Assembly: GCA_027603945.1 (NCBI GenBank)
Contig: JADIIU010000003.1
Span: forward strand, 248,001-312,000
DNA length: 64,000 nt
Source: Terramyces sp. JEL0728
Lineage: Eukaryota; Chytridiomycota; Chytridiomycetes; Rhizophydiales; Terramycetaceae
Direction: 5' to 3'
Shown: positions 1-64,000 of the stretch, piece after piece
Position numbering within the stretch: position 1 is the stretch's first letter
How the letters are laid out: every line of letters begins with the position of its first letter
The notes under the pieces: generated by a model
Told to the model about the DNA's origin: nothing
Seen by the model: the letters and a program-made list of their open reading frames with translations, nothing else
Database searches by the model: none
Program-made: the position numbers and the translations under genes

Positions 1-1222
1 GGTAATCAATCAGAGTCTTTTTCGCAGCGATATACCCGCCTGCAGCTCCAAATGATTTTGTAAATGTTCCCATTAGAATATCAACTGAGGATGGATGCAT
101 ACCATAATAATCGCAAATACCTCTCCCATTAGGACCCATAGCACCGACAGAGTGAGCTTCATCCAAGTACAAGTAAAACTACATTAGTGATCTTTTACCT
201 TGTACTTTTCTTTTAGTTCAACAATTTCTGGTAATTTGCAAATGTCTCCTTCCATGGAATACAATCCTTCAACGACAACTAGAATCTTTTTATAGGGACG
301 ATGAGTTCGAGGCTGGCCCTGAGAGATTGAGTCCCTAAGCACCATTTCAAGGTCAACGGGGTCATTGTGCTTGAATACTTTAATGGTTGCTCCAGACGTT
401 CTCGATCCGAAAACAATTGAAGCATGGTTTAACTCATCAGAAATGATCAAACACCCCTTGCCAGCCAAAGCGGGAATAATAGTAGAGTTTGTGCCGAATC
501 CCATCGAAGTAATTAGAGCGGCTTCTTGGCCCAAAAACGAGGCTACCAATTGCTCGGTCTCGTTATGCAAATCGCAAGAACCAACTTCCGCACGAGAAGA
601 ACAAGTAGATATCCCTCTTTCCTTTACAATTTCTTCAACATTGTCGGTACACCGTCCATTATTTTCGCCAAACCCTAAATAATTGTATGAAGATAAATTC
701 AGCAGCGAAATTAGTTTTCCGGTATGTCTCGTCAAAAAGCGCTTACCTAAATGTCATGTTGAAATCATCCGAAACCCTTTCGAACACAGTAACCCTGCCG
801 CCAGCTACGCCAGTAACAGTTCTGAAGAAGGAATCTCTGATACGCATATACAAATTACGGTGATAAAAAGTATCGAATCCAGTGGTAATAGGTGCAAGTC
901 CATTTTGTGGATACAAGTGTTTAACCGCTTCGGGATTAGTCCACTTGATTATAAAATCCTTAATGTGTCCTACGCAAATCAAAATAAAGTAGGATAGATA
1001 AGTGGTAATTAAATGAACTAGCGGAATACTGTCTTCGGTTACTGGGGGTTTTTTTGGTGCACTGTACAGTGCGGGTGATTCCAATAATTCCTCTTTTGAA
1101 GCCAAGGTATCAAATGAAGTTTTCGGGACTTTGAAATTCTTGTGCGCTCGTTGACCTCTTCCCATTTCCAACTGCAAATTGTCAAATTCTTTCAACTTGA
1201 AAATATGCTTTGGCTCAGCCAC
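1..1222 (-). CDS. LCB2: Serine palmitoyltransferase subunit 2 (3' end beyond window)
   Basis: Condenses serine with palmitoyl-CoA, the first step of sphingolipid synthesis, at the ER membrane. The N-terminal part has a hydrophobic helix at about residues 68-90, as in fungal LCB2. It is followed by the aminotransferase fold with [10 protein letters not shown], the DELNHAS motif, LDEAHS and the PLP-lysine motif GTFTKSFGA close to the window edge. Two introns are needed: 728-746 (19 nt) and 179-198 (20 nt). They restore FNMTFRHTGKL and [13 protein letters not shown] respectively. The ATG at 1222 is the first in frame. The last codons lie outside the window. The gene diverges from the isomerase gene across about 250 bp. 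Family assignment is firm; the choice of the LCB2 rather than LCB1 subunit rests on the intact PLP lysine. Confidence 0.95.
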
Positions 1223-1474
1223 ATCTGATGTGATTTGAATGGGGAAATAGTCAAATATAGTCTGTATAATAATCGAATTTCAATCGCATTCACTAGCGTG
1301 CATTCCCGAAAAGCCCGTCTTACTTTTTCCTCTTGTAATTTGAAAGGGAGATATCATGTGTCTGGCTAGTTAAACTTACCGGTCCTCCCGTTGTCAAAAT
1401 GTCAACAATTGCATATGGCATATGATCATGTGTTCTTGGGGTATTTAAACTCGTCGGTTCGCCCGTTCTCAAAA

Positions 1475-2285
1475 ATGTCAAAACAAATCGTCTTTACTGA
1501 AATCAAGAAAGGGTACGCAATCCTCACAATCAAAAGGGATCCAGTCAATTCAATGAATTTGGATTTATGGGAACAACTGGATGCAGCAGTTAAATCCCTC
1601 GAAAACGATAACAGTGTGCGAGCAGTGATTTTCAAATCTGGATTAGAAAGACCTATTTTCACTGCAGGAAATGATATTTTGGAATTGTATGCTCCAAAAT
1701 CTAGCAAAGAGAGATACACTAAATTTTGGAAATTGCAAAATCAATTCTTGGCAAACGTTTACAATTCCAGACTAACTACTGTCGCAGCCATCAACGGAGC
1801 TTGTCCTGCTGGGGGTACTTGTCTATCTTTGGTGTGCGATTACCGTATTGCAACTCCAGATATGTCTATGGGACTGAACGAAGTTGCATTAGGAATCACT
1901 GTTCCGGAATACTGGATGAAATTGCTAGTTAAGATCGTTGGACAAACTCACGCAGAGAAAATTATCTTGTTTGCTCAAATGGTTGACGCAAAGAAAGCTA
2001 TTGAAATCAATTTAGTCGACCAGATTGTTGAATCAAGAGAAGCCCTCTTACCTGCTGCTGAAGCTACAGTCAGACAAGTAATTAATACTAAACTAGTTGT
2101 TGAAGACTCCAGATACAGGACGAGTCATCTGCAAAAACATTTTGCGTCAAGAGTTGGCAAGCGAATGGGGAGATGATGAAAGACTTGAGGCAGAAAGTGC
2201 CATGGGATGGGGAATGTTGTCGCTTCCAAAAACTGTAAAGAGTTTGGAAGGTGTCATTGCTCGCTTATCAAAGCCAAAGCTGTAG
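1475..2285 (+). CDS. Delta3,Delta2-enoyl-CoA isomerase (crotonase fold), probably peroxisomal
   Basis: A 263-residue crotonase-superfamily protein. It shows the oxyanion-hole segments (FTAGNDI, AAINGACPAGG) and the DYRIATP and LNEVALGI segments typical of ECI/DCI isomerases, which shift double bonds during beta-oxidation of unsaturated fatty acids. A 19-nt intron at 2078-2096 must be removed; splicing joins ATVRQ to LLKTPDTGR and gives a C-terminus ending in Pro-Lys-Leu, a PTS1-like tripeptide. I chose the ATG at 1475. An in-frame ATG at 1415 would add 20 residues, but that extension shows no conserved segment. An AATAAA lies about 10 nt after the stop. ECI is the best fit; a 2-enoyl-CoA hydratase is less likely because the usual hydratase glutamate pair is not evident. 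Confidence 0.85.
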
Positions 2286-2388
2286 ATTGTTTGAATAAAG
2301 CATTCGTTTCTGGTGAGCATAAGTGCAGTTTTGCAAGCTAAAACTCTGAGTTGAATCATAGGAATTCTAACGTGTAAATCCATATGTT

Positions 2389-3007
2389 TTATTCTCTTTG
2401 AATCCTCATTGACAATTCTCTAATCTTTCCATCCTTCAATGTCAGCAATTCCTCCAGTTTGGATACTTTTAACTGCAGGATTTTTATCGTCTCGTTCATG
2501 TCATGTATAACCGGATTTATCATTGGATCTGGTTGATATTCATGGACAATCTTTTCCTTGGCAGTTGGTTTGGGTTTCTGTACTGGTTCTGGTGACTGGA
2601 CGGGGGGATGGTGAGGAGTTGGGTTGTGAAAACTCTCAATCTGTATTATCCAAAAGTTACCTTGAACCGAAGCTCGTACAGCAAATATTCCACGTATCCA
2701 GGCCGCATGGCTACAATACAGTGAATTATCTCATCTGAGGTTACGTATCCCAACTTTTTGAAAACTTTAACTACTATTAAAATAAAGTACAGTTGAGTGT
2801 ATTCCAGTTGTAAAGCTTTTGAGACATTGAGTTTGCAGGAGAGTAGTTGTGTAGGTCGACTATCTTTGGAATAAAGTGATGAATTAACTCTGCGCATGCC
2901 ACTCCATCGCTAAAGTCTCGAGTTATATTTCGTTTCGGACGACTAAATTTCGCTTGGTCTATCCAGTCATACAAGTCCTGGATTTCCTGCTCGTTCAGTT
3001 CGTACAT
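2389..3007 (-). CDS. SPEF1: SPEF1/CLAMP, calponin-homology-like microtubule protein of cilia
   Basis: Sperm flagellar protein 1 bundles central-pair microtubules of axonemes. The 192-residue product opens with the CH-like domain, including LYDWIDQAKFSRPKRN, DFSDGVACAELI, FIPKIVDLHNY and LYNWNTLN. A proline-rich linker (about residues 115-135) leads to a C-terminal coiled coil, the usual SPEF1 architecture. Two 20-nt introns, at 2771-2790 and 2641-2660, are required; the first restores NFKVFKKLGY, the second joins the CH domain to the linker. It is convergent with the isomerase gene. This protein is normally found only in organisms that build motile cilia, so it argues that this organism has a flagellated stage. 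Confidence 0.9.
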
Positions 3008-3075
3008 ATTGCGTGAAAATTATGATGTCACTCGCAACAAGATGGAATAGAAATAACACGTATAGAATGGTTATA

Positions 3076-4641: not shown

Positions 4642-4685
4642 TTTTCTGATTGCAAAGATTGCTAAAAGTGGTGATTTTAATGTTC

Positions 4686-4705: not shown

Positions 4706-4757
4706 AATTACTTGAATTTATTGGATGAAATTCGACGTAGCTAGTTGGATAAACACG

Positions 4758-6341
4758 CTATTCTTCGCCGTCCTCCCCTTCAGCTAGCTCGACTTCCTCT
4801 GCAGATTTCCCTCCTTTTTTGAAGAGGTTTTCCGGTTGCAACTCCAAATCAAATTCACTCTTTTTGTTCAAGAACCAAGAATAATCGTCGCTGCATTGAT
4901 CTACCAACCGAAGCCAGTCCGCAAATCTACGTTAATTCAACCCCTACTGCCCTTCTTCTTTTTCCGTATCTGAAATAGCTTTGTAGATCCACTTTTCTTT
5001 AAATTCGTTGATCGTTTTTTGGAAAGGAGTAAAGTCAATAGCATCGCGATCTTCGTTTGAACCTTCTTTTTCGTTGTAATGATCAAATATGGGCTTGGTT
5101 AACAAAATATACTCTTTCTAATAGCAATCCCAAGGCTGGAGCTTTTGGGATATTCACCCTTTCAGATCCAAAACAGTGCTGAATCAAATCTTTCTTTGTC
5201 CCAGTTCTAACCATCAATATTGCTAATCCAATCATTTTCCTAATTTGATGAAGCATAAATGCCTGTCCCAGCACTTTGCAGCTGATCCATTCTATTCCAT
5301 CTCTTACAAATGGCTCTCCAGATTGGAAATCAATGATAAATCGTTTCACTGATTTATCTTTATACGATTTACCAACTGTGAAATTGTGATAAAGCTTGGT
5401 TCCTTTATATTCTGCTAAAATTGCTTTCAGCTCTTCCAGTTTTTCAGGTGTGGCCCTATAGCCTTGCAGTTCATTTAGTGTATCTTTGTCAACAGGCTCT
5501 AATTCTTGAGGTTCGTTTAATTCCCTAGTCAGAGTGCTGATGTCAAAGTTATTTTGTGCAGCAACATTGGAGTAAGGATAAAAGGACGGGTCTACATCTC
5601 CCAAACAGTATGTAGGCAGCAAGTATTCATAAATGCGAGAGTCACACATCACTTTGGCGCTGAATTTGTTTGGTACCCTGGACCACGACCATACCCGAAT
5701 TTGCGGAGGCAGTTTTTGATTAATCATATCTATTATCCCATCCTCCAAAGTCATTTTCAAAGACACGACATTACCAGCAGCATGAACTCCTTTGTCTGTT
5801 CTTGCACATCTTACAAACGAAGACTAATTAATCAAATGTTACTTTGTTTGGATCCATTGCGTTATCTTGGGAAACTGCACCAGAAGCCGCTAATGCTTTG
5901 TGTAAGTCTAATTCGATTGAGGACGCCAAGGGATTACTGATTAATAATAAAGTACATTTGCATTCCGTGATAGCCTGTTCCAGCGTAGCTCATCAATAGG
6001 GCTACCTTCTTTTTTGGCTTGCGGGTTGAATTTGGGTTTGGTTCTCTAGGACCGCGCTCTTCGCCAGAGGTTTTATATTTGCGTTGTGAAGCTATGTATT
6101 TCTTTTCAAATCCAAGATTTTCGTTTTCTGAAATTGCACCACACTCTACTGGCTTGAGAGACAATGCGACCAAATGTTCCGCAATTGGTTCGTCCAACTT
6201 GACTTGCTTTACTGCAAAGTCTTTCTGTTTGTTCCTTCTTTTCATATTACTGAATAATTTTCTACCAATAATTTTTTTTGTCAACTGGAATTGGCTTGAG
6301 GGGAATATTTCTGTCTTATTGTCGAATGACTCTTTAGACAT
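4758..6341 (-). CDS. PUS1: tRNA pseudouridine synthase Pus1 (TruA family)
   Basis: Isomerises uridines in tRNA and some mRNAs and snRNAs in the nucleus. The 501-residue product has a basic, low-complexity N-terminus, the TruA start YAGTGYHGMQ, and the catalytic-aspartate motif CARTDKGVHA. Later come RVPNKFSAK and CKVLGQAFMLHQIRKMIG. Four introns are removed: 5937-5955, 5824-5842, 5094-5112 (all 19 nt) and 4927-4947 (21 nt). The second lies just before the catalytic motif, and without it the ARTD segment is out of frame. The acidic tail ends at 4758. Splicing yields an exon sum divisible by three, which supports the whole model. Confidence 0.95.
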
Positions 6342-17598: not shown

Positions 17599-19093
17599 TT
17601 ATTCTTTATCAACGTAGTTCGCCATGGGGTCGTCATGTCTTTTTCTAGTAATGCGATACGCTTCAAGTTGTTCTGGTGTCATATGGTCTCCATCAACGAA
17701 TTTATTTTTACGCATCTTTTCAACTTCTTCTCTGACCTTTTCTTGATCCAATTCACCATCATCTGTCCGAACCTTTTTAGTTTGTCTGTTTTCAATCTTT
17801 TGTTCCTTGTTTTGCTCAGCAAGTGATTTCGTGGTGCGTTTCATCGAAGAGCGAGTTATTTGGTTCTTTTCAGCGTCAATAGCCGCCTGTCCACCACAAT
17901 AAGAACCCTTTAATAGAGAGTGGCAGCACTTATAGCCCCATTCCCCACCTCTCCAAAAACTGCCCCATATATTAGTGTGGTTGCCAGTCAATCTAATATT
18001 ATAAAGCTATTACATGTCTTCAGGATATCTGGATTTAGGTATATTGATTTGTCCTTTTATAACTTCGCCGGTAGCAGAGTATTCAACATACTGCTCTGTT
18101 TGCGCGAGCAACAGCTCTTGCGGAACAGATTCCAAGTGCTCTTTTCCGCCGTACTTTTCTAATAGAGACTCGCGCTCCAATTGAGATTCGATATTAGGCT
18201 TGTCTGCATATTGTTTAAACATCAGTTCGTCCTGGGTTGGATTGATATTAGCCAAGGTTTTTTGACCTCGTTTTTCAGCTTCCCACGCAAAAGACTGCAT
18301 TTTTGTAACCTGCCATTAAAACAAATTACCTCTGCATATTGCCCAGTGTATCTTGTAAAGTTATCTCCCGCGTACATCACTTGAGTCGGATCTAGCTTAG
18401 TAATAACGCACCTTTGCCTTCGTATGGGTTATCTCTCATGGTACGTGTTTTAGGGTCGTAGTAGGCCGATTCCAAGTCCAAGTTACGAAGGTATTTCGCA
18501 GTATCTTCTCTGATACGCAGGTTACGCACTGTAACTCTTGTTTTGTCATCCACACGCTGACCGACAGCCTCTCCTCTTTCTGCATATTTTTCTTCGTCAT
18601 CACTATCATCTAATTCTTTGGAATCCTTTGATATCTCCTGTCGTTTTGCTTTCCTTTTTTCTTCGACCAACTCCCACTCCTCAACTTGTCTCAGCTGCTC
18701 TTCAGGATTATACCCATTCCAGCGATCTCGTTTCGCATCAAATCCGAGTTCAAGTTTTTGTACAACTTCGTCCGGCTGAATATCCATTCCGGTCCATTTG
18801 GCTCCTTTCTTTCTTGGTCTTTCTAGACATTCTTTTGTTTTATGGGACATTGCTCCACAATTTTCACAAGCGCCTTTTCTGTATTTTGTAGAAGCCGGTC
18901 CTTGAAACTTTCCTCTCTCATACCATTTATCAAACTTGTCAATTTTCTCTGGTTTGAAGGAGGTTGCTAATTCCCGATCCAAGTACCATGGTTTCTTGGC
19001 AATGAATAACGGAATATGGGGATTCAGAGGCTTTTCTTCTGGTTCTCCTGTCTTTGCCTTCCTCTGTTCTCTGACGATCTCTTCCGTTGACAT
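17599..19093 (-). CDS. SLU7: Pre-mRNA splicing factor SLU7
   Basis: Second-step spliceosome factor involved in 3' splice-site selection when the branch-to-AG distance is long. The 477-residue product shows KKPWYLDRE, the CCHC zinc knuckle [45 protein letters not shown], the C-terminal [17 protein letters not shown] and the ending DDPMANYV. Introns: 18392-18411, 18310-18329 and 17993-18013. Length and motifs look complete. Its presence is notable in a genome whose introns have almost no branch-to-AG spacing. It is convergent with RPF1, with 19 nt between the two stop codons. Confidence 0.97.
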
Positions 19094-26452: not shown

Positions 26453-27926
26453 ATGGGTATTGGAAAGAAATTAGGACAGTTTGCACAGGTATAATATTGC
26501 TAATCGTAGTGGACTGGTAATAAGGAAACTAAATTCAGGTGAAAAATTCGGCCAATCCCAAAAGACAGGTACTGGAGATTTAATGTAGAAACGAGTGAAG
26601 AATTTAAACGCCTACAAGATGAAACCATCGTTCGAAAAGATTGCGTAGACCGGATTGCAGCTCCCTTGGAAGGCGTACAGAAGCAGCTCAGTAATTAAAC
26701 TTTTATCATAGCAAAAACAAAGGAAGATCCCGAAGATAAAGTGCAAAGGGTGTTGTACGATGTATTAGGCCACGCAATGACGCATTTCGCAGATGTATTG
26801 CCAAGCGATTCGTTTTACGGTGCCGATTATTTAATGCTAGGAACTACGTTGCAAATGGTTGGTCAGGCGCACACACAAATCGCCGTGGAACAGAAATTAC
26901 TCGTAACTTTCAATTAATCCAGGCATCAAATATACAAGAAGGCTATCTTTTGAGTTTGACTGAAGATTTGGCTGCGCACAAGGAATATGCACGGTTGGAG
27001 GTAAAGCTGCAGAATAGAAGACTGGATTTTGATGCCAAATTGAACAAGGTCCAGAAAAGCAAAAAGGAAAACACTGTGCTTGAAGAAGAAGCCCGAGTGT
27101 GCCAAGCAAAGTACGAGGAAACCTTGGAAACCATTACACAACACATGTTGAACTTGTCTTCCAACGACGACGACCATGCAGATAAATTATTAAAACTCGT
27201 TGATGCGGAATTGACTTACTTTACCCAATGCGCTCAAATAATGGCAGATTTGAAAGAATCACTTTCGCAGTAACTCTTACTAATTGTAGACAAACTCGCC
27301 CTGCTCCTAAAGCCACACAATTCAGAGTTCCAAAGTCTTCCTCTGTTGGAAGAGTCAGCAGCATTACCTCTTCCTCGAATCGGCTCTCTGATACGGAAAA
27401 GAAAGAGCCAGTTTCATATATTTCCAGCAATTCTACCGTAGGAAGAGGTCCGCCGCCACGTCCAGTTAGTTCCAATGCTCTTAAGCAGGTTAAAGCTTTG
27501 TATGACTTTGATGGGGAAACGGATCAAGAATTAACTATTAAAACTGGCGAAATCATATCTGTCACCGAAGAAATTGATTCCGGCTGGTGGATTGGGACTG
27601 TAGTAGGCAGCAATAGGTCAGGAATGTTCCCAAGCAATTACACAGAAGTATTGAAATCTACACCGCCTCCAGTCAGACCTAGAGCAACATCGCACACTCC
27701 TTCAAGAGATTCTACCTACCGCGATTCTATTAACGACCGAAACAGGACTGCTAGTAACCCGCTTGCAAATGCAGTCGCCAGCCATGTCGCTAGACAAGTC
27801 GAATCCACAATTACGGCAGGTACTTGCGAAACTTGTAAGAATGAATTAACGTTAGGTGGTTGTAGAGATTTCGTTCCTCATGCATTCAAGGCTGGGCAAT
27901 GCAACAACTGTTATCATAAACATTAA
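26453..27926 (+). CDS. BAR and SH3 domain protein with C-terminal zinc ribbon
   Basis: A 449-residue endocytosis/actin type scaffold. An N-BAR-like start MGIGKKLGQFAQWTGEKFG leads into a BAR domain (about residues 20-235). A Ser/Thr-rich linker follows, then an SH3 domain (about 290-350: ALYDFDGETDQELT, SGWWIG, GMFPSNYTEVL). The end holds four CxxC-type cysteines (CETCKNEL, CNNC) forming a probable small zinc-binding module. Six introns: 26489-26509, 26517-26538, 26569-26588, 26691-26711, 26903-26922 and 27270-27289. The first two enclose a 7-nt exon. BAR domains of this kind bend membranes at endocytic sites; the terminal zinc module is unusual. Confidence 0.9.
26510..26516 (+). other. Seven-nucleotide microexon of the BAR-SH3 gene
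   Basis: TGGACTG is flanked by a 21-nt and a 22-nt intron. Including it gives the N-terminal join AQ-WTG-EKFG, which resembles the start of related BAR proteins (QW-x-x-EK). Skipping it shifts the frame. The exon is a third the size of its flanking introns. Confidence 0.75.
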
Positions 27927-42104: not shown

Positions 42105-44118
42105 TTATTTGGTAAATACTCCCAACGCTACCAACACATTACGGCTTGTAAAACCAACATTATAAACAGGGGTACGTTTTGTTGTGAAGCTCTTTACGCA
42201 CTCTTCTCCACTATCAGCGATAGTTGAACTCAATGGCAGAGTCTGAGCCTTCTTTGCATCCCATATTTTTACAGTATCATCATCACTTGAGCTGGCAAGC
42301 AGGGTAGAGTTTTGTGAAAAATCTAATGAAGTAACGGTGGATTCATGGCCAAACATTTTCTTTACCAGCTGCCCACTGTTGATATCCCACAATCTAATTG
42401 CATTATCTCCACCAGCACTGGCCAAAAGTTTACCATCCGGCGAAATTGAAAGTGCAGTCACTGGACCATTGTGTTTTGGGAATATACGGACGCAGTTTCC
42501 TTTCTGTATATCCCAAAGTCTGCAAGTCTGATCACTACTTGCAGTAACAACATAATTACAGTTTGGATGGAATTTGACATACTAAGTTAAAGAGGTTTTA
42601 CATCAACATCTGATAAATGGCCGACAAATAGACGCAAAGGGAAAATGTGATCTAGAGACCAAAGTCTTGCTGTTTTATCAGCACTAGCGGTCGCAAAATA
42701 AAATCCTTGGTTTGCAAATGCAACGTCGAATATTGGGTAATTATGGCCTTTGTAAGAAACTAGAGCAGACTTTGTTTCAGTAGACCACAGTCGCACTACA
42801 TTAATCGAATGTACCAGACTTGTCTTCGGAAGCAGATAAAAGATACTTGCCATCACTACTGAAATCTAGCCCATAAATCGGACCAGAATGGCCAATCAAA
42901 TTGGCTGGCGGAGGGGCTATGGTTAGTTGCAATTACCAGGAATTTCCGGTCTATTGGCTACAACATTCCACAGTTTGATAAAGGAATCGCTGAGTCCAGC
43001 CGCAATATATTCAGCATTCTTTGAAGTTTTGAGACAATTTAAACTAGGTTAGTGATAAAATACTGATTTTCAGTGTTGTGGAATGTATAACAGACAATCG
43101 ACGGCAAGTTGTTGGAAGTCAGATTCACTCGTAATCTTAAATCGCGAAGGTATTCGATTTCAGCTTGTATATCTATGAGTTTCTTTGGAGGGAGGGGAAC
43201 ATCTTCTGGAGAAGGTCCAAGCTCTTGCGATGTGACTACTTTTTGAACCTGTTCCAGCAATTCAGGTGCATCAGAATGGATTTGAGTGGCAAGCGCTCTT
43301 TCAATATCCCCGTAAAAGGCTGCATCTGGTTGGATTGGCCCCAATTGCACCTGCTGTTGGTTAAACGCAGTTAAAGAAATATCTGTCCCGATCAATCCAG
43401 TCCCAGTATCAGACTCCTGTAATTGCCCTGGCTTATCGTTGGTAGCTAAATGAACAGCTAAATACCTTGAATTGTAATGTACTGATTCATTAATCGCAAA
43501 ACCATCATAAACTTGTTGTCTTGAAGGAAACTCAATAGCAATTCAAAAGAGTATTTGCACATCTTGATTCCATACTTATTTTGTCTGAAATTGATGCACA
43601 ACTCATCCTCCTGCAAGTGGAGCGGATCGTTAATTGCCGACAAACAAAATATTTCATTTGCATGAGTTTCCAAATGATCTCCTTTGTATTGTTCAAAAAA
43701 TTGAGTTGCTGCTTCTTGAGACCCTTTTTGAACCAAATCCAAATAAGCATGAACAAATATAGGAAATAAAATACGTTTCAGTTCAAGCTGCGTTATTTGT
43801 TGGGTACCTTGTATGTATCTATAGAATCATCAACCCATTTCACTAATCGAGCGTAACTCTGCTCATACGCTTTAGGATTGTTTGCTTCTTCCTCATTATA
43901 AAATAATACGAAATTTGCTATTGAATCATCGTCCACTGGTTCCGGCGCATCCTTTAATCTGGCTTCCTGGCGAAATGAGTGTTCTGCACTCTTGAATCCT
44001 TAAATGAACACAAATTTACCTGAAATTAATATTATTTGTACCTAGCGATTAAAATGAGAGAACCTCTCTTTGCGAGATAGTTTGCCACGATTCTATCACT
44101 GGTTGTCTGATCTCCCAT
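42105..44118 (-). CDS. TAF5: TFIID/SAGA subunit TAF5 (WD40)
   Basis: Scaffold subunit of TFIID. The 609-residue product has an N-terminal LisH motif ([22 protein letters not shown]), the TAF5 N-terminal domain ([25 protein letters not shown]), and the linker ending FHNTENHLNCLK. WD40 repeats follow ([58 protein letters not shown]), with the end [18 protein letters not shown]. Seven introns: 43999-44063 (65 nt, composite), 43788-43807, 43446-43465, 43044-43063, 42917-42936, 42796-42814 and 42582-42601. The exon sum is divisible by three. The gene diverges from mS45 with 26 nt between start codons. Confidence 0.96.
43999..44063 (-). other. Composite 65-nt intron made of three abutting mini-introns
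   Basis: Read on the minus strand, the TAF5 first intron divides exactly into GT...AG units of 22, 22 and 21 nt (44042-44063, 44020-44041, 43999-44019), each of standard local intron length. The donors are GTTCTC, GTACAA and GTAAAT; the acceptors are CGCTAG, TTTCAG and TTTAAG. The LisH sequence is contiguous only when all 65 nt are removed (AKRG joined to FKSAEH). Confidence 0.8.
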
Positions 44119-45038: not shown

Positions 45039-48000
45039 TTAAGGTTGTTCCAAGTTCATCTTTTCGACTTCAAGCGATACTTCATCAAGTTCCCCAAACC
45101 CGCTTTCTCTCAACAAATCATCAACTACGATTAGTATCAAAAACCTTCGTCTAGCAGTGCCTTGTCATCGATATGTTCTGCTTCCACAGGCTGTTCTACC
45201 TGTTTAACAGAAGGCACAACCCCACCTTCAGGGCTGTCATCGCCCACAGCTTTCTCTCCAGGAGTCTTTTTGCCAACCATTTTATCGCCTAACCCTGTTG
45301 CCCATTTTATGCTTCCAGTGAAAATAGACTCGGTTATTTCTCTCGCTGGCACAGTCTTTACATTTGTGTATACTCCGCTTTTAGTTTCATTCAGCACAAA
45401 GGTGGAATTGAACGTCGCAAAGTATTCCACTAAGAATTCATCTGAAATAACCAATTCTTGAAAGTCGGCAAAGGTCAGAGCAAATGAGTCGCCTGGTTTT
45501 GAAGCAAATGCCCTATTCAGCAGGGCAGATACTGAAGATAACGGAGCATCCCCTTGCATCTTGCGGAAGAGGAACAGCAGCGATTCAGATAACTGTATTG
45601 TGTCTTCTCTAGTTAGTTTCCCATCTTGATCAGAATCGTGAAGGGTAAAAAACATCTGAAGGGTTCCACCAGAATGCATAATATCAGATAATCCAGTTAC
45701 AATGTCCTGTAAATCAACTAGACCATCTCCATTTTTGTCAAACACTCTTTTAAAGAGCAGTGATAGGAAAAACGCTCCTTGGACTGAGGTGGTTGCAAAC
45801 TGTCTGGTGTCATCGTCTTCCTCTGTGTCGACAGCCCAATTGCATATATGGCTCATAAATTTATTGAATTCGTTGGTGCTGATTTTGTCTTGGGCTTTTT
45901 TGGAATTGTTATAATACTGAATGGTTGAAAATGCATCGCAGACATACAGCAATTCATCCTTGGAAAATTTGTATGTAGTTTTAAGTTGTCTAATGGTAGA
46001 TTTCTTGGAATATAAATCCATTGATTGAATGACTTCCAATTGAATGGATTTTCGCAGAGACACAATTAAATCTGTAGTGACATTCTGGAATTCTTTATAG
46101 GCACAAAGCATTAATTGATTGAATTTGGTTGATTGGCGTGCAACTTTTCCATTATTTTCCACTGGCTGGGTTTCGCCTAGCTTTGTAAAATACGTCTTTA
46201 AAATATTCCTAGCTTTAACTTGTGCTTACATGAATTCTCCTTCATCTTTGATTTTAAGAATTTCTTCGCCATTTACTTTGAGAATCGCCAAACCCATTTG
46301 GAACAGGAACTTTGCCCCTTCCATGAAAAAGCAGTCGAGCACTCGCAAAGCATAAGGCAGCGGGAATGAATTTACATATAGGGTTAAAAACCACGGTAGA
46401 CAGGCAACAGAGAGTTGAATCTCGTATTTCTGCAGATGATCACCTAAAACTGGCATGAACTGCTTCACTAGTTTTTCAAAAACATTGTTGTCAATGACGG
46501 CCCCGACCATGTTTACACTAAGTTAGAACAGACATACGTATAATAATTTGGCAGCATCTTCTCACATAGCACCGTCAACAACCAGAATGCCTGTTCTTCG
46601 GTCATGTAGATCAAGAGAACACTCACAATAATGTTCATTGCTTGACAGTACCCAATTTCAGGATCATGGAATGAATAGGCATACAGCACTCTTCGCAGAG
46701 AGTCTATACCTTCTGGATTTTGATATGCTTTGTACTCTGGCAGACTCCTATTTAAATCCTTTTCGATCTCCTCGATCGACAAAGACTTGTATCCAATATG
46801 ATCGGCATGCAGTTTCTCATAGTACCCTTCTCTTGCAAACCGTTTGTGAATTGCTCCAGAACAAACTTCCCATAACTCCCCTCTCAGGGAATTAGGCAAC
46901 CCGACACGAACAAGCTTGATAAAGGTCGGCAGTCTGACTGTGGTTAAATTGCGGCCAAATTCTCTAAAGTAGGACAGCCAAAATCTGATCTTTTGTTTTT
47001 CATTTGTCCTAAGTTAGTAAAAGATACTTTTTCTGATCAACAGGGTACTCGAAAACTGCTCCTAAACCCTTTGCAACATTTTCTTTTCCTGCGAGCAGCT
47101 CTTCGGAGGGACAGGTGGCTAAAAACGGCTTGAGCTTTTTCATGGATGCAACATGCTCCTGCAAGCGATCTTTGAGGATTCCACAAAACTTGTCAGATGT
47201 AGCTTTGTCAGTGGTGAATTGGAATAGCAATTTTAGATTGTGTCTGGCGGTAATTGCAACAGTTGAGTTTTGCGTATTAATTCTTTCTACTCTCATTACT
47301 GCAAAAAATGGTAGGGTTAGCTGGCATTGATATTTGGCTGTAGAAATAAAGCAAATAAAGTTTTGAGAAAGGTATATCATTCCGTGGAAATTGTTGTTTG
47401 TTCCCGAGATTGAGCAAATACATATTGTCTCCTCCAAAATTTTGTCTGTTGTTGGAATTGAAAATAACGACTGAAAAGCTTCATTTTTCTTTTGGGCTTC
47501 AAACAAGTGTTTTAGCGGTTTGTGATCTGGGTTGTTCAAAAACTCCACCACGGCTGTAGGTTGCGCACGTATTTCGTCTGATTCATTCTGGGTGGATTGT
47601 CCTGGTGCTGGCTCGGTAGCAGTTGAGTGCAGCAGTTTCATCATCGCCAAGTTCAACAAATACTCAATTAATTCAAAAGTTTCATCTCTCTGGAACAAGT
47701 TTGAGAAAAAGTGCTGTTGGTAAGTCGAGAATTACATTGATCTTGTTTTTTGTTACTATTTTGATAGCATCCGAGACCATTCCTCTTTTTGATCTTTCTT
47801 TGGATATTTCGGTGATTTGCTTTAGCTCAATCACGACTTTGGTTTCAGCACCAAGGATTGAAGAGTAAAAGCAAATATACGACATTGACATATAAAGCCA
47901 TCCTTGATTCAGTAATTTTTGGTGATAAGAGCAGGAATAGAAATTCACAAATTTCTCATCTTCAGGCATCCTAAACAACTGCCTCCACGATCTCGCTGCA

Positions 48001-48254
48001 GCTCTGTATTTTGCATCGGTTGATTTTTCATCTGAGCCTCCATCTTGGTCAATTGGAATCTACCTGGATTATGGACCAACGACATGAATTTTGACATTCC
48101 ATAAGCTTCCTTGTCTGATTCATCTTCCAACTCATTTATTTCATTCAACACGTTTTCTGGTTAAATGTTATTCTACCTTCTATCCATTTCCAATCTTGCT
48201 GAATTTCCCGCAGGGTTTCTGCCGCCTATTTTAAGGAGCGATTACACTAACCAT
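45039..48254 (-). CDS. GRAM-TBC-EF-hand RabGAP (TBC1D8/9-like)
   Basis: A 1017-residue Rab GTPase-activating protein. After an acidic N-terminus with WKWIEENVL come two GRAM domains (about residues 90-190 and 250-370), then the TBC domain. The TBC domain carries the arginine-finger motif IEKDLNR and the glutamine-finger motif GYCQAMN, so it should be catalytically active. Near residue 800 two EF-hands are seen (DKNGDGLVDLQDI, DSDQDGKLTREDT). Eight introns of 19-22 nt: 48226, 48157, 48044, 47714, 47009, 46518, 46209 and 45125 (lower ends). The first exon codes for MVS only. The exon sum is divisible by three. Confidence 0.93.
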
Positions 48255-48785
48255 CTTGCCATTGTTTACATCTGGAGTTTTTACTCTGAATATAATTCTA
48301 TATGGCGGCTGTTTTGTTTCAAATCTACGTTATCTGGGGCTTACACATTCTGTACTGTAGCCCATATGTTTTTCAGCATTGTCTTGTTTTCATTCCCTTG
48401 ATATTTTTGCAGCAAAAAACAGCTGCTCTCCTGATATTAGATGATAATAACCATCTCTGTTTGCCAGAGCGAAGACGGTTCAACTGCTGTCGGAAAGGTC
48501 CACATTTCACGATTTCGCGCCTGTTTTAAAAATTGGCAAAGCCTGCGTGAACATAATTGGCTAATTACAATCCACAAGCGAGCAGATATTTCGATTTTGA
48601 TGTGTGCTACTCACATTTTGATCAATTTGTTACAGATGGAGCTCATGTTTACTGTTGGTGCCAATACATGGAACACCATTGCGCATATGTGATACGATTC
48701 TTCAGCCTCGATGTTAGAATAACTTGGCCGCAGGGAAAGCAACAATTAGGCTCGAAAATTTAGCTTTCGCGACTTTCAATCTCGA
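48255..48785. other. Intergenic region, TBC gene / LRR protein
   Basis: About 530 bp between divergent genes. An open frame at 48557-48763 lacks an ATG and any recognisable motif. I see no RNA gene or repeat. Confidence 0.5.
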
Positions 48786-54866: not shown

Positions 54867-57676
54867 TTAATCGTCATCTTCGGTGAAATCACCATATCTC
54901 CAAATATTGTGTCTGGACTTTTTGGCAAGTTCTTGGGCATCCATCAATAATTCCAAGTCTGTTGGAGCACTCTTGGTTAGCAATGCAGCCTTGTTCTTTA
55001 ATTTTTCTCGTTGTTCGCGCAAGTAGCGTTTTGAGTGAACTTTGGACACATAGGCGAGACTGCTTTCAATCAACTGTTGATTAACAGAGATGATCTTTGA
55101 ACCAGCAGGTTTCTTGACATACAGCAAAACAGATTGGACAGGGCCATTTAAAGTATTGTTCACACCAAGTAACTTTGCATATATAGTCTGCCCACTAATA
55201 ATGGAGCAGAATTCTGATGTGGCATCTTGGAGATAGTCAGATTCATCAGTTGGGAAATCAAGGTAAGCCAATTGCGTTTCAACTGCTTGTGGTTTTAATG
55301 TTGTAACTGAAAATTGGGAAGGGAGCGGTCTCAATCTAGATCCAGGAACTGTTTCAGAGTTGCCATAATCAACGTACCAAATATTGTAAGAGTTGGCTCC
55401 ATTGATTTTTCGAACTCTTGCTCTGTACCATTGTTTATCAGCAGTGAATTGGGCACTGCAGTATTCACCAATCTTTGGCGTGAACGGCGCAATTAATTGC
55501 TGCCCAGCACCGCTGTGATATTGAGCGAATTCAGTCATCAGATTCTCCAATTTTTTCAATTCTAATTTAATGCAAACATACCTGGTCCGCTAACTTGTAC
55601 AAAAAAGTTTCCATTTGATGACACTTCTGTTACCAAAACTTCAGTGATTTTAGCTTCAGTAACTTGCACACTAGCGATTTCTTCAACTACTTTGTCAGCG
55701 GGATCATAGTTTGTCCAGATATTCTTTCTAGCAGCTTTTGCAGAAGTTTCGGCATCCATTAACTGATTGGCAAATGGCGATTGTGAAGCTGAATATTCAT
55801 GAATGGTGGCCAACCCTTGCTCAAGGATTAGTTGAGCATAGTTTGTTGGTTGTCCATGATGTACCGGAACAAATACGGTTCCAATGAATCCACCAACTTT
55901 ATCCACACCTTCAATGGATACTTCCACATCTCGTTGGAATAGCTTACCATTTGCAAACGAAGCTGCTTCATTTCCATATGGCTCAGCTTTTTGAGCTTCT
56001 GTCTTGCCAGCTTTTGGAGTTCTAATTCCAGATAAAACAAGCGTCAAGCGAAGGTTCTGAGGTGGTACGTAGACTCGAAATCTCGATCCAGATGCAACGT
56101 ACTCAACGACACACTTCAATTTCCCTCCTCTTTGTAACTGGGCTAAATAGTTCTTTGCCTTTGTTGCATTTTCAGAAGCATCAATGGTTCTGTGCACTGG
56201 AGCTTCCTTTGTGGAATGAATACCTTTGTTTGCAGAAGTTGCCTTTTCTTCAGCTTCCAAAAGTTTGTCATATGCAGAAGATCTATTGTGATCGTCTTTT
56301 TTGTGTTTGATTACAGAGGCGTATCCTCTTGTAACTAGCATTTCGGCAATATTTACTTCACCTTTCAAAACAGAAGCACAGTCTCTCTTTTCGTACTCTC
56401 CTTCGGCAGGCTTGGTATAATCAATTTTGACAGTAACTTTTTGGCCAATGAGTCTAGCTCGCAAGTATTCAACAGCATCAACGTAGTATCCGATATCAAA
56501 ATCTTGTTCATTCTTTTGTCTTTTAGGGCCACGAATGCTGGAAAATCCAATTTTGCGTTCTTTTCCACCTACTTCAACATTGATAAGATCTGGACCGATT
56601 ATTTTCGTAACTACAGCCTGGAAATTGCTTGCATTTGTTGCTGTTTTAACAAACCCTTTCCATAATCTGAGTTGCTTGGCTTTAGCTGCTGCTTCACAGG
56701 ATTTGTACTTTTCAGGGTTAGTTACAGAGGCCAAGTTCCAATCCAAGATTTTGGCGTAGCCTTCAGCAAGTAATAATTCAGCAATATTGCCAGCAGGATG
56801 CGAAATAGAGCCAAAGAATGCCAATCCTTGTCCTTGCCCTGAAACTGATTCGAAAAGGATTTTAATAGACCGTTGTAATAATCTGGCCTCGGTGAAATAT
56901 TTTGCTTCTTCTGATAAAGGTTCAATAAGATCAGGAACCCCTGGAATATCTTTGCGATACACAGGAGCTTTGATGCCAGAGATTTGAACAGTTAGGAATT
57001 GATGCACTGAACCAATAATAGCGACAACGCGGAGTGTAGAGCCGTCTCTCACTTGCTCAACGATTGCTATGATTAGGAAAAAATACCATCCACAGGAACA
57101 TTCTTGTATTTTTCAAGAAATTGGCGCGGATCACTTTCAAAGCTGTAAGCGATTTGGCGCTTGCATTAAAAACGCATTACCAATGTATACGGTTCGTCTG
57201 ACCAGATTCCTAATCTCTTGGATTTTGCGTGCTCTTCAAGCCCCAACAGATATTCTTGTTCCCTGATTGAGATAAATACTTACTCTGTAGGAATCCGCTT
57301 TCCATCAGCTTGCTTGACCTTGACAAACCCATTCTTTGCCAATAATCTGGCGATATCGGTTTCTCCATCAATTGGATGCTGAACTTCCAAGGATCCAAAT
57401 TGCCTGTTAGGGGATGCGTATTCCAATTTATATCTGACTTGCTTGCCAACTAAGAGGTTGCGCAAGTATTCCCTGGAGTCATAAGCAAATGCCTACGTTA
57501 GTAAAATTTACCTCTTCTTCCACAGATTTATTTCCCAATCTTGGAGCATTAACGTTGCTCAAAGACAAGATCAATTCTGGAGGTGGACCATTGGTTGGTT
57601 TACCTCTTAGGATAACTGAATCGCCGGAAATGATGGATTTAATTGATGCGAAACCAACATTTGGAAATGCTGACAT
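54867..57676 (-). CDS. SND1: Tudor staphylococcal nuclease (Tudor-SN/SND1)
   Basis: A 902-residue protein with four SNase-like domains, then a Tudor domain inserted in a fifth, partial SNase fold. Landmarks: VQAIKSGD-like SIKSIISGDSVILRG, VEQVRDGSTLRVVAI, GYASVIKHKKDD, VEYVASGSRFRVYVP, and the Tudor core WYRARVRKINGANSYNIWYVDYGNSE. It acts in RNA metabolism and stress granules. Introns: 57493-57511, 57263-57283, 57160-57180, 57067-57086 and 55562-55581. The first four crowd into the first 600 bp, where exons are 73-209 nt. The length equals that of animal SND1. Confidence 0.96.
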
Positions 57677-60327: not shown

Positions 60328-60348
60328 CTGCTGAACGCGAAAATATTT

Positions 60349-61595: not shown

Positions 61596-61713
61596 TTAAA
61601 AAGCTAAATTTCAAGAGCGCTAATTCATTTGTGCTTCATTCGCAGTAGTAATAAGCTCACTGGCAATAGCAAATTCGAAAAATGACGTATCTATCTTTTT
61701 TCACTCCTTAAAA

Positions 61714-63351
61714 ATGATAGTACTCATTGCTAATATTAGAAACAAAAATCTGCGAATTCTATAAAGCTTGAAGTAACAGAATAATTTTGATTGTAGAAAC
61801 CAATTACTGTGATTACGAGAGACAATATTCGGAAACTCCGTCCACACCTAAACAATGAAACTGAAGTCAAAAAGAATAAGCGCGCAATTGTAATAGGAGC
61901 CGATGAATTGAGTAAGATTAAAGTAAGCGGATTCTAAAGTAGAATGCGGCGAATTTCTTGACTGCCAGTGATTTGCAAGAGCGTGATAAACAATTGAACG
62001 AACACAAGAACGAACAATTAGCAATTGCAACCAACAGAAAAGTCGGAATGAAGCTAATGATAGATAAAGATGGAGAAGCATGATGTTTTACGCGCCAAGA
62101 ATGCCAAGCTGTCAGAGCTGGACAGGGAAACTTTGGAAAAGGCAAACCACTTGCTATCTAAGGCTCAAATGCAAATTGAAGAACAAGAGGATGATATTAA
62201 ACATCTCAACGAATTGATGCTGTATGCAAAATGTGTGTCGATTAGAGATAACCAAGTGGACCAAAAGGCAATCCATGTTTGACGCTAGAAATATATCCAA
62301 CAGCAAAAAAAAGAAGAAGATTTACGATTGGATGCAATAATGGAAAGAGAAAGAGTAAACGAATTGGCGAAATTGGAAGAAAAGGAACGCAAACGGATGG
62401 AAAAGCTACGAAAAGGTGCTGCCAAGATCAGACAGCAAATAGAAGAACGAAGAGAAGCCGCGCTCTTGGATCAGGAAAGAAAAGACCAGGAAACAAAGCA
62501 AATTCTAAAAACAATTGCTGAAAACGCTGAGCAAGAAAAAAGAGAGAAAGAAGCCAAAGTCAAAGCTCAAAGAACATTGATGCAAGGAGTAACAGCTGCC
62601 AACCAGGAATCAATTGAATTGAAAAAAAAGGAAAAACTATTGGAAGAAGAAGAAGATCGTAAAGTCCTGCAATACATTTTGGAAAAAGAAAAGAGAGATT
62701 TAGAAAATGATCGTATCCAAGGCCAAAAGAAAGCAGAAAGAGAGCAAGAATTGGCAAGATTGAGAGCCGCTCAAGAAAAAGTAATTCTCTCTAACGGCAG
62801 ATGTCTGATAAACAAGCTCAGCAAGACGCTGTTCGTGCCCAAAGAGCATATGAAGCGTATGAACGAGATTGGAGACGTAAGGAAAAGGAAGCCGCTGAAA
62901 AGCAGTTGCAAATGGAAAGAGAGCTTCGTGAAGAACGCTCGAGACAGCAACAGGCAAGAGAACAAGCAATTGCAATTGAATCGCACAAACTCAAAGAAGA
63001 ATTCGTAGCCTCCCTTCGACAACAAAAAGATATTGAAGCTCGAATCAAGCAAGAAGAGGAAATCAGAGCACAAAAGAACAGAGCTTATGCACTGGAAGTC
63101 AAGGCGCAAATAAGAGAAAAAGAACTGGCTAAACAAAAAAGCAGGGATGAATTCTTTTTGGAGGGTGTCAGACTTGGGCAAGAAAGAGCTGAAAAGAAGC
63201 ACAAGATTGATGCTATTAAGAACCGAAAGATTGAGGTGCGTATTACTAATCATAGGAATTACGCAACATGGGCGTTCCTGAAAAGTATTGCAGCGAAATT
63301 GAACGCCAAGTTCATATGACAAACAAACATTCCTTTAGTATGGCGAAATAA
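61714..63351 (+). CDS. CFAP45: Cilia- and flagella-associated protein 45
   Basis: A microtubule inner protein of axonemal doublets. The 496-residue, almost wholly coiled-coil product matches the family in order: LRPHLNNETEVKKNKRAIV, IGADELSKIK, MEKHDVLRAKNAKLSEL, EDDIKHLNELMLYAKC, MERERVNELAKLEEK, AYERDWRRKEKEA and the ending GVPEKYCSEIER. Seven introns: 61720-61739, 61773-61796 (24 nt), 61924-61943, 62042-62063, 62268-62288 (GC-AG), 62781-62800 and 63237-63256. The first exon codes for two residues. The exon sum is divisible by three. Together with SPEF1 this shows that the organism builds a motile flagellum. Confidence 0.95.
62268..62288 (+). other. GC-AG intron, 21 nt
   Basis: In CFAP45, removing GCAATCCATG...GACGCTAG gives QVDQKKYIQQQKKEEDLRLD, the same spacing (15 residues) as I recall for the human protein between the matching landmarks. 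It also puts the typical TTTGAC-GCTAG acceptor in place. A GT donor eight bases inside would make a 12-nt intron or, with the next AG, a 27-nt intron; both give poorer alignments. Confidence 0.7.
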
Positions 63352-63510
63352 GAATGTAGAAATATATTGTTTTTGTGTTAATCGGCTCTCAAATTTGATT
63401 TTCCTGCGGTTAGTCCGAGTTATTTGCATCCACTGACTAGCGGTCCTTGGAGTTTACTTGTACTGCAAAGTTGAAGTGAATTTTTTCCATCCAACAAAAA
63501 AAGAAAAATA

Positions 63511-64000
63511 ATGGTTGTAAGAATTAGGTTAGCAAGATGGGGAGCAAGGAATAATCCCTTCTATGGAATAGTGGCAGCAAATGCAAGAGCGCCTAGGGAT
63601 GGAAAGCATCTTGAAAGATTAGGAACTTACAATCCAATGCGAGATGAGAATGGACACAAACACTTGGAATTGGCCACAGACAGAATAAAATATTGGTTAG
63701 GAGTGGGTGCGCAGCCATCAGATAGAGCCGCCTGGTTATTGTCTAAAGTAATTCAGTAGTTAATGTAGGCAAATTTGATGCCAGTACTTCCCAGGAGACT
63801 ACAGGATTTAGGAATGCTTGATTTAAATGATATCGATACATGGAGTGTCCGTCTAACTGACGAAAGCGGCAAAGAATTGGGAATAGTTACCAGCGAAGAA
63901 GCAAGGCAGTACAAACAAGAAACAGTTGTGGTTTTAAACAGATTGGATAGGGAAAAGATCCAGTTTGACAAAAAGAGGGATGCTGTTCTTAGTCCAGAAG
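63511..64000 (+). CDS. MRPS16: Mitochondrial ribosomal protein bS16m (3' end beyond window)
   Basis: Homolog of bacterial S16: VVRIRLARWGARNNPFYGI, GKHLERLGTYNP, and IKYWLGVGAQPSDRAAWLLSK at residues 2-78. A 21-nt intron at 63748-63768 splices LLSK to ANLMPVLPRR and opens a C-terminal extension of at least 75 residues that runs off the window. Bacterial S16 is only about 80 residues, so the extension is lineage-specific; it is charged (LDREKIQFDKKRD) and has no motif that I recognise. A cleavable presequence is absent, as in yeast MRPS16. Confidence 0.92.

What the first reader, a model, noticed from the sequence alone, without database searches (positions are those of the whole stretch)
1..64000. 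About 125 introns, almost all 19-22 nt, with a compact branch-acceptor module
Every multi-exon gene here becomes a full-length family member only after removing GT...AG segments of 18-24 nt. In all complete models the exon sum is a multiple of three (for example TAF5 1830, LRR type 2 1803, GRAM-TBC 3054, SND1 2709 nt). The consensus seen is GTA at the donor and TTAAC, CTAAC, TTAAT or TTGAC about 2-5 nt before AG. Introns this short are known from ciliates (Stentor 15-16 nt, Paramecium about 25 nt) and chlorarachniophyte nucleomorphs, but fungal introns are usually over 45 nt. A whole genome of about 20-nt introns in a flagellated, fungus-like organism would be remarkable and challenges the minimum distance that U2AF, SF1 and U2 need.
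Basis: partly seen in the sequence, partly recalled or inferred. Interest (0 to 1): 0.95.

Follow-up and report, generated by a model that had tools for sequence, protein, structure and literature searches.

The report
Twenty-nucleotide introns in a chytrid fungus
This chytrid fungus interrupts most of its genes with introns only about 20 letters long, near the smallest size known in any organism, and its ordinary-looking splicing genes make it a promising place to learn how short an intron can be and still be cut out.

Summary
A motif scan without gene models gives a sharp excess of GT...AG segments at 19-22 nt, on the sense strand of genes: 243 sense against 12 antisense. With a flat 12-120 nt length prior a gene finder puts 94 of 114 window introns at 19-22 nt; trained, 130 of 137. 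Twenty other stretches of the 15.0-Mb genome behave alike. Against profiles of distant fungi the predicted splice is the best GT-AG choice in 15 of 15 testable introns; 4 of these had no competitor. Two near-identical gene copies differ by 1-nt gaps only inside introns, never in exons. The organism is Terramyces sp. JEL0728 or close kin, a true fungus (Chytridiomycota). New here: intron length follows from two nearly independent distances, donor-branch 14-15 nt and branch-acceptor 5-6 nt. U2 snRNA, U2AF65, SF1 and Slu7 are present. Such introns are known in Stentor, mikrocytids and nucleomorphs; I found none reported for a chytrid in the papers searched. No RNA evidence was available.

The parts
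54867..57676 (-). SND1 (Tudor-SN) gene, 902 aa, five introns
   Evidence: 100% identity to Terramyces sp. JEL0728 HDV01_004185, which lacks 4 residues
57493..57511 (-). SND1 intron 1, 19 nt
   Evidence: 0 of 447 alternatives better (only one GT-AG choice in the grid); retained 52.7 against 1144.0 bits
57263..57283 (-). SND1 intron 2, 21 nt
   Evidence: 0 of 468 better; retained 1133.2
57160..57180 (-). SND1 intron 3, 21 nt
   Evidence: 6 of 468 better, by at most 0.3 bit and of the same length; best GT-AG choice; retained 1136.1
57067..57086 (-). SND1 intron 4, 20 nt
   Evidence: 0 of 458 better; retained 189.0
55562..55581 (-). SND1 intron 5, 20 nt
   Evidence: 0 of 458 better; retained 913.3
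42105..44118 (-). TAF5 gene, 609 aa, nine predicted introns
43999..44063 (-). 65-nt removed stretch at the start of TAF5 that parses as three abutting introns (22+22+21 nt) with no exon between them
   Evidence: the only triple parse among 13,599 GT..AG segments of 60-68 nt
43788..43807 (-). TAF5 intron 4, 20 nt
   Evidence: 3 of 458 better by 0.2 bit, same length; only one GT-AG choice; retained 75.2 against 839.9
43446..43465 (-). TAF5 intron 5, 20 nt
   Evidence: best GT-AG; 3 of 458 others better, by up to 0.6 bit, shorter; retained 247.0
43044..43063 (-). TAF5 intron 6, 20 nt
   Evidence: 5 of 458 better by up to 1.2 bits; 20 nt is the best length; only one GT-AG choice; retained 367.1
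42917..42936 (-). TAF5 intron 7, 20 nt (poorly conserved stretch)
   Evidence: best GT-AG by only 0.1 bit over a 32-nt one, and 124 of 458 others score up to 3.5 bits better; retained 414.3
42796..42814 (-). TAF5 intron 8, 19 nt; the deposited Boothiomyces protein has 7 extra residues exactly here
   Evidence: (0 of 447 better; retained 446.9)
42582..42601 (-). TAF5 intron 9, 20 nt
   Evidence: best GT-AG; 3 of 458 others better by up to 1.6 bits; 20 nt is the best length; retained 596.3
4758..6341 (-). tRNA pseudouridine synthase 1 gene, four introns (upstream start codon uncertain; deposited protein starts 32 aa later)
5937..5955 (-). PUS1 intron 1, 19 nt
   Evidence: 0 of 447 better (only one GT-AG choice); retained 44.9 against 615.1
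5824..5842 (-). PUS1 intron 2, 19 nt
   Evidence: best GT-AG; 8 of 447 others better by up to 1.7 bits; 19 nt is the best length; retained 108.8
5094..5112 (-). PUS1 intron 3, 19 nt; missed in the deposited Terramyces protein
   Evidence: 0 of 447 better; retained 510.3
4927..4947 (-). PUS1 intron 4, 21 nt
   Evidence: 0 of 468 better; retained 603.4
17599..19093 (-). SLU7 gene (second-step splicing factor), three introns of 20, 20, 21 nt
   Evidence: Pfam Slu7 289.2 bits
6547..9449 (+). large beta-adaptin-like gene (name by eye), 940 aa, four introns all 20 nt
   Evidence: introns rank 1-4 of 52 GT-AG candidates
45039..48454 (-).
   Evidence: ranks 1-10 of 89
26453..27926 (+). gene with eight introns of 20-22 nt, two of them separated by a 7-nt exon

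Best explanation
These are U2-type spliceosomal introns of a chytrid fungus (Terramyces sp. JEL0728 or very close kin) whose introns have shrunk to a near-fixed 19-22 nt. Each is read as one compact module: GTA(A) donor, a T-rich run of about 8 nt, branch site YTAAY, then 2-3 nt and YAG. Shown from sequence: the segments, the fit of their removal to conserved proteins, the motif, and two nearly independent distances (branch A at intron position 14-15; 5-6 nt from it to the last G) whose four combinations give 19, 20, 20 and 21 nt. Inferred: U1 pairs with the short donor, SF1 and then U2 bind the branch, and U2AF has no downstream tract, so it reads YAG or the T-rich run upstream of the branch. 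A lariat loop of about 15 nt with a tail of about 5 nt then forms. The two distances would be set by the geometry of the catalytic core and act, with the motif, as the recognition signal (intron definition). Retention would shift the frame in about three quarters of cases.
For: Motif peak at 19-22 nt. Sense 243 against antisense 12; control lengths 19/15, 34/17 and 19/16. Flat-prior gene finder: 94 of 114 at 19-22 nt. Profile test on 15 introns: predicted splice best of the GT-AG choices in 15 (11 had more than one choice), its length the best-scoring length in 13, retention costs more than 100 bits in 12. Two gene copies 99% identical over 3,092 aligned bases: both 1-nt gaps inside gene models fall in introns (142 nt), none in exons (2,220 nt). 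Branch A at 14/15 in 278 of 314 and A-to-G 5/6 in 279 of 314; joint 63/64/63/58, r = -0.10. With weights trained without the gene tested, 42 of 42 introns in 8 genes are the top-scoring GT-AG 18-24 nt segments among 386 (partly circular outside the three homology-tested genes). U2 snRNA 140.2 bits with GUAGUA intact. U2AF65 model 334 bits spliced against 251.7 unspliced, cut-off 310.3. SF1-HH 113.5 bits spliced against fragments of 66.2 and 42.9. Slu7 289.2 bits. Deposited Terramyces proteins match 4 of 5 SND1 and 3 of 4 PUS1 junctions.
Against: No transcript data. U1, U4 and U6 snRNAs were not detected, so the donor-pairing part is untested. 18 of 446 introns in good models are longer than 24 nt and unverified, and the strict motif at 43-46 nt is twofold on the sense strand. 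TAF5 intron 7 is not resolved by homology, and 4 of the 15 tested introns had no rival GT-AG in the grid. The deposited annotation differs at SND1 intron 1 and PUS1 intron 3, where the profiles favour the tiny intron. The two gaps lie in short homopolymers, where assembly errors are also likeliest. PWMs and the gene finder were trained on the same loci.
Confidence: 0.95

Rival explanations
1. The segments stay in the mRNA and frames are rescued by programmed frameshifting or translational bypassing.
For: 328 of 428 segments are not multiples of three, so frame rescue would be needed if they stayed.
Against: Requires a GT start, YTAAY branch and AG end at fixed distances, a U2-branch-like signal irrelevant to ribosomes. 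If retained, 76 of 100 segments whose length is a multiple of three would carry an in-frame stop (inflated because the finder misses stopless ones). Homology mostly demands deletion of the exact number of nucleotides. A copy pair differs by 1-nt gaps inside two of the segments.
Confidence: 0.01
2. Artefact: indel errors in a draft assembly, or a gene finder forced to bridge frames.
For: The gene finder was trained on this genome; assembly of 231 contigs.
Against: The gene-model-free scan shows the peak. Antisense counts are at background. Errors do not make 19-22 nt GT..AG blocks with a branch motif. A deposited SND1 protein of the same family, Boothiomyces, has the same length and 89% identity.
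Confidence: 0.01
3. Excision by a non-spliceosomal route (tRNA-type endonuclease/ligase, HAC1/XBP1-like, or DNA-level elimination).
For: The segments are far below the usual fungal intron size.
Against: GT-AG, YTAAY and Y at -3 (373 of 428) are spliceosomal signals. U2 snRNA with GUAGUA, U2AF65, SF1 and Slu7 are encoded. The segments are present in the genomic assembly, so elimination in the same DNA is excluded.
Confidence: 0.02
4. Mixed architecture: most introns are tiny, but a real minority of ordinary 40-120 nt introns exists.
For: 18 of 446 introns in models scoring 15+ exceed 24 nt. The strict motif at 43-46 nt occurs 34 times sense against 17 antisense. TAF5 loses a 65-nt stretch.
Against: 31-34 and 55-58 nt show 19/15 and 19/16. 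The 65-nt TAF5 case parses as three tiny introns.
Confidence: 0.3

Closest known systems
Chlorarachniophyte nucleomorph introns (Bigelowiella natans, 18-21 nt)
   Same: Same length range and narrow spread (PMC10245619 section 7 read; PMC5014332 passages, which say 18-20 nt are removed efficiently and 21-27 nt poorly).
   Different: A relict endosymbiont nucleus with over 800 introns in about 300 genes. Here an ordinary fungal nucleus of 15.0 Mb with an extrapolated 25,000 introns.
Stentor coeruleus introns (15-16 nt)
   Same: Branch A at a fixed place with a 5-nt tail; U2 GUAGUA and nearly all U2 proteins conserved (PMC9505925: abstract, section 4 parts 1-2 and section 10 read).
   Different: Stentor branch A is at position 10-11 with a weak branch consensus, and 18% of genes have introns. 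Here position 14-15, clear YTAAY branch, 111 of 124 good models have introns.
Mikrocytid introns (Mikrocytos mackini 16-17 nt)
   Same: Tiny, near-uniform spliceosomal introns.
   Different: Only 224 introns in a rhizarian parasite with a highly reduced spliceosome (17-19 proteins identified); here dense introns.
Ordinary chytrid and other fungal introns
   Same: GT-AG and a YTAAY-type branch (the latter recalled for fungi); density 2.31 per kb CDS is of the order of the 3.93 mean for two Chytridiomycota (PMC8476143 passages).
   Different: Length is about a third of the 63-bp mean that paper gives for Cryptococcus neoformans.

Membership tests
U2-type (major) spliceosomal intron | GT-AG termini | tested here: met
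   Required by the finder and by the scan, but the scan's length peak and the profile test support them: predicted GT-AG best in 15 of 15, 11 with competitors
U2-type (major) spliceosomal intron | Branch site complementary to U2 GUAGUA near the 3' end | tested here: met
   314 of 428 introns have exactly one strict YTRAY at 1-6 nt before AG; U2 snRNA GUAGUA intact
U2-type (major) spliceosomal intron | Donor complementary to U1/U6 (GTAAGT-like with +5G) | tested here: inconclusive
   GTA conserved (374 of 428) and +4A 0.53, but +5G only 0.21; U1 and U6 not found
U2-type (major) spliceosomal intron | Core factors encoded (U2AF65, SF1, Slu7) | tested here: met
U2-type (major) spliceosomal intron | Removal from RNA as a lariat | not testable with these tools
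   No RNA data
Ultrashort-intron genome (nearly all introns under about 25 nt) | Narrow unimodal length distribution under 25 nt | tested here: met
   420 of 446 introns at 19-22 nt in 124 good models from the window and 20 other stretches, 264 kb of 15.0 Mb
Chlorarachniophyte nucleomorph intron | Located in a relict green-algal nucleus | tested here: not met
   Proteins match chytrid fungi; 15.0-Mb genome
U12-type (minor) intron | RTATCCTT donor | tested here: not met
   +3..+6 ATCC is not among the 20 commonest of 428; rare cases not excluded, and U12 and U6atac were not searched for

The most novel reading that the evidence does not exclude
A fixed-geometry spliceosome: in this chytrid lineage (Terramycetaceae and, judging by defects in deposited Globomyces proteins, also Globomyces) introns are accepted only if two separate distances, about 15 and about 5 nt, fit. 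Longer stretches would then be removed stepwise as abutting ~20-nt introns at AG|GT points, a miniature form of recursive splicing, as the 22+22+21 stretch of TAF5 suggests.
Probability: 0.25. Interest if true: 0.9.

Novelty: new variant of a known kind. Interest (0 to 1): 0.78.

Why it matters
Genome-wide introns of about 20 nt or less were known from a few remote lineages: heterotrich ciliates, mikrocytids and nucleomorphs. A chytrid belongs to Fungi, close to the systems where splicing is best understood, keeps recognisable U2AF65, SF1 and Slu7, and carries introns in 111 of 124 good models. That makes the long-standing question of minimum intron length testable: which distance limits it, how U2AF works without a downstream tract, and how a ~15-nt lariat fits the active site. 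It also warns that public gene models of this and related genomes are wrong at some of these introns.

Tried and rejected
U6: the two Rfam hits (27 bits) lie over a gene end with a 21- or 20-nt intron in two near-identical gene copies and lack the U6 AGC triad; I take them as false. A consensus DNA query found nothing. A core pattern with 2 mismatches found two sites, as many as its backwards control. A 3' pattern found one site in what reads as coding sequence and no U6 match there. U1 and U4 gave nothing; no eukaryotic control genome was searched, so absence is not shown. The SSU rRNA search failed by machine error and was not repeated. U2AF35, U5, U12 and U6atac were not searched.

Rejected idea: that the deposited annotation simply forbids introns under 20 nt. 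It skips the 19-nt introns SND1-1 and PUS1-3, but splices the 19-nt PUS1-1 and PUS1-2 as I do.

Rejected idea: multiples of three are avoided. 21-nt introns are not depleted (88/188/95/49 at 19-22 nt). The excess of in-frame stops in multiples of three (76 of 100, against 58% in the other frames) is confounded, because the finder can absorb stopless ones into exons.

The branch-distance correlation of -0.38 used a scored branch choice; with strict single motifs it is -0.10. Dropped rows: 32 of 156 models scoring under 15; 114 of 428 introns without exactly one strict YTRAY in the distance analysis. Zero-length exons: 3 of 335 internal exons, about 1 expected if introns were placed at random (my estimate, no call), so not clearly enriched. 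The triple-parse rule was written after seeing the case. The 15-nt intron predicted in SF1 I do not trust. A first copy of the profile script stopped on TAF5 and its stored scores were read. My notebook's '95 of 115' for one search is a miscount; the list gives 94 of 114.

Literature: ten searches listed no report of tiny introns in Terramyces, Boothiomyces or other chytrids. Some lists were capped (25 of 1,316; 15 of 179), I judged most papers by title and abstract start, and PMC11210171, which mentions Terramyces and introns, was not opened. Passages only of PMC8371127 (sanchytrids) and PMC12862383. Only CC-licensed PMC papers were searchable, so an existing report elsewhere is possible. Searches failed on term length and one search was not held.


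Full report
WHERE IT IS. The window is G000:C3:248001-312000 of a 15,016,339-base genome in 231 contigs. My SND1 model is 100% identical over the alignment to hypothetical protein HDV01_004185 of Terramyces sp. JEL0728 and 89% identical to a Boothiomyces sp. JEL0866 protein. PUS1 again hits Terramyces JEL0728 first, at 97%. The NCBI taxonomy puts both in Fungi, Chytridiomycota, Rhizophydiales, Terramycetaceae. The P0001 and P0241 records give a contig of 367,593 bases, which fits C3, whose length should lie between those of C2 (384,731) and C4 (313,492) if contigs are ordered by size.

IS IT REAL. Without any gene model, segments GTA ... YTRAY N1-6 AG are in excess at 19-22 nt: window 29/46/22 at 19/20/21 nt against about 5 each in Markov resamplings; 200 kb elsewhere, 75/97/52/40 at 19-22 against 13.4-17.4. 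The stricter motif falls on the sense strand of genes 243 times, on the antisense strand 12 times and outside models 33 times; three control length ranges give sense/antisense 19/15, 34/17 and 19/16, the middle one (43-46 nt) twofold for reasons I did not follow up. After retraining it gave 137 introns in 45 window models (130 at 19-22 nt) and 342 in the other 20 stretches. Over the 124 models scoring 15 or more: 446 introns, 420 of 19-22 nt, 111 models with introns, 2.31 introns per kb of CDS, phases 187/143/98 for the 428 of 18-24 nt. Scaled to the genome, 446 per 264 kb means about 25,000 introns (extrapolation).

DOES REMOVAL RESTORE PROTEINS. Profiles were built from 70, 70 and 60 homologues of SND1, TAF5 and PUS1, taken by length from the 120 listed for each, leaving out the Terramyces, Boothiomyces and Globomyces rows. 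For each intron, deletions of 10-36 nt starting within 9 nt of the predicted donor were scored. Of 18 introns, the first three of TAF5 abut each other and the grid cannot resolve them. In the other 15 the predicted splice was the best of the GT-AG choices every time; 4 of these had only one such choice (SND1-1, TAF5-4, TAF5-6, PUS1-1), and TAF5-7 led by only 0.1 bit. The predicted length was the best-scoring length in 13. The two exceptions are TAF5 introns 5 (beaten by 0.6 bit) and 7 (124 of 458 alternatives better, by up to 3.5 bits). Retaining one intron costs more than 100 bits in 12 of 15; the other three, all 21 nt and so in frame, cost 8-12 bits (SND1-2, SND1-3, PUS1-4). The U2AF65 gene itself gains from splicing: 251.7 bits in the raw six-frame match with four stops inside, 334 bits after removing four introns of 19-20 nt, above the curated cut-off of 310.3.

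A NATURAL TEST. Two loci on different contigs, L010 and L011, are near-identical copies (3,072 of 3,092 aligned bases). Inside the gene models they differ by 15 substitutions, all in exons (2,220 nt), and by two gaps of one base, both inside predicted introns (142 nt), each turning a 21-nt intron into 20 nt. No gap lies in an exon. A second pair, L005 and L006, has no gap inside the model, and 31 exon and 3 intron substitutions. Both intron gaps sit in short homopolymers, so assembly error is not excluded, but errors should hit exons too.

ANATOMY. GTA in 374 of 428; +4A 0.53; +5 is T 0.44 and G only 0.21; T-rich up to the branch; branch motifs TTAAT 106, TTAAC 66, CTAAT 65, CTAAC 38; -3 is T or C in 373 of 428. 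For the 314 introns with exactly one strict YTRAY, branch A is at position 14 or 15 in 278 and 5 or 6 nt before the last G in 279. The four combinations occur 63, 64, 63 and 58 times, r = -0.10 over all 314. The 19:20:21 peak is therefore explained by two nearly independent two-valued distances. With donor, branch and acceptor weights trained without the gene in question (the length weights came from all genes), all 42 introns of eight genes outrank every other GT-AG 18-24 nt segment in their genes (386 candidates). The finder uses similar weights, so this is independent only for the homology-tested genes, but it suggests that the compact module carries enough information to be recognised without exon signals.

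MACHINERY. U2 snRNA scores 140.2 bits, with the branch-pairing GUAGUA intact. U2AF65 (arginine/serine-rich start by eye, two Pfam RRM_1 stretches), SF1 (SF1-HH 113.5 bits, KH, zinc knuckles) and Slu7 (289.2 bits; encoded in the window) are present. Usually only 2-3 nt lie between the YTAAY motif and AG, so U2AF65 must bind elsewhere, perhaps the T-rich run upstream of the branch, or act through U2AF35 at YAG (inference; U2AF35 was not searched). Slu7 is kept although branch and acceptor are 5-6 nt apart; from memory, yeast Slu7 is dispensable in vitro at short distances. U1, U4 and U6 were not detected, which these searches cannot distinguish from divergence, interruption or an assembly gap.

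PUBLIC ANNOTATION AND RELATIVES. The deposited Terramyces SND1 lacks four residues at the 19-nt intron 1, which Boothiomyces has. The deposited Terramyces PUS1 lacks 15 residues at the 19-nt intron 3. The Boothiomyces TAF5 protein carries seven extra residues, GIEISNV, exactly at Terramyces intron 8. Read back in the intron's phase, they fit a retained 21-nt GT...AG intron without stops (the DNA was not seen). Globomyces proteins show eight extra residues at the TAF5 intron-1 site, losses next to TAF5 intron 9 and PUS1 intron 1, an early end at PUS1 intron 3 and an SND1 start close to intron 4; several other intron sites are undisturbed. This suggests tiny introns there too (inference from proteins only).

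TANDEM CASE. The first 65 nt removed from TAF5 parse as three introns of 22, 22 and 21 nt with no exon between. No other GT..AG segment of 60-68 nt among 13,599 examined (sense, antisense and outside models) parses this way; the rule was written after seeing the case. Chytrid TAF5 proteins run through this point without extra residues in Boothiomyces and several others. It may be one 65-nt intron, or three removed stepwise. Double parses occur by chance (9 sense, two of them within this triple; 5 antisense; none outside), so L030's 21+20 pair carries little weight.

KNOWN RELATIVES. Stentor 15-16 nt with branch A at position 10-11 and a 5-nt tail (PMC9505925, named sections read); mikrocytids 16-17 nt and chlorarachniophyte nucleomorphs 18-21 nt (PMC10245619, section 7 read); Trichomonas down to 23 nt (PMC12316389, passages). 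The 644-genome fungal survey (PMC8476143, passages only) describes no tiny-intron class in what I read. It works like these and belongs to the same kind, but in Fungi, at high density and with a different donor-branch distance. I call it a new variant of a known kind.

LIMITS. No RNA. DNA of one genome, 264 kb of it modelled. Gene models from a self-trained finder. Literature limited to the held library.

Noticed in passing
window 43999-44063 (-): TAF5 begins with a 65-nt removed stretch that parses as three abutting introns (22+22+21 nt) with zero-length exons; unique among 13,599 comparable segments. Possible miniature recursive splicing.
   Followed up: partly
window 42796-42814 (-) and protein P0121: The deposited Boothiomyces TAF5 protein has 7 extra residues exactly at this intron site, as if a 21-nt stopless intron had been left in by the annotation.
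   Followed up: partly
proteins P0122, P0007, P0292 (Globomyces sp. JEL0801): Insertions, losses, one early end and one protein start lie at or next to Terramyces intron sites, suggesting tiny introns in Globomyces as well.
   Followed up: partly
G000 whole genome: U2 snRNA is found but U1, U4 and U6 are not, by Rfam models and, for U6, also by DNA query and two patterns. Gap, interruption or divergence is undecided.
   Followed up: partly
window 26510-26516 (+); L017 813-820 (-): Exons of only 7 and 8 nt between tiny introns in predicted models.
   Followed up: no
window and L012-L031, strict motif at 43-46 nt: 34 sense against 17 antisense matches, a twofold excess not seen at 31-34 or 55-58 nt; possible rare 45-nt introns or tandem pairs.
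   Followed up: no
all introns, donor +5: +5G, usually a strong donor position, is at 0.21 while T is 0.44.
   Followed up: partly
window 61714-63351 (+): Coiled-coil gene resembling the axonemal protein CFAP45 (by eye, not searched), which would fit a flagellated zoospore; it holds one unverified 33-nt intron call.
   Followed up: no
L010 and L011, around 1501-1606: Two near-identical copies of a VMP1-like gene (name by eye) on different contigs gave the false U6 hits; their introns differ by single bases. Recent duplication or allelic contigs.
   Followed up: partly
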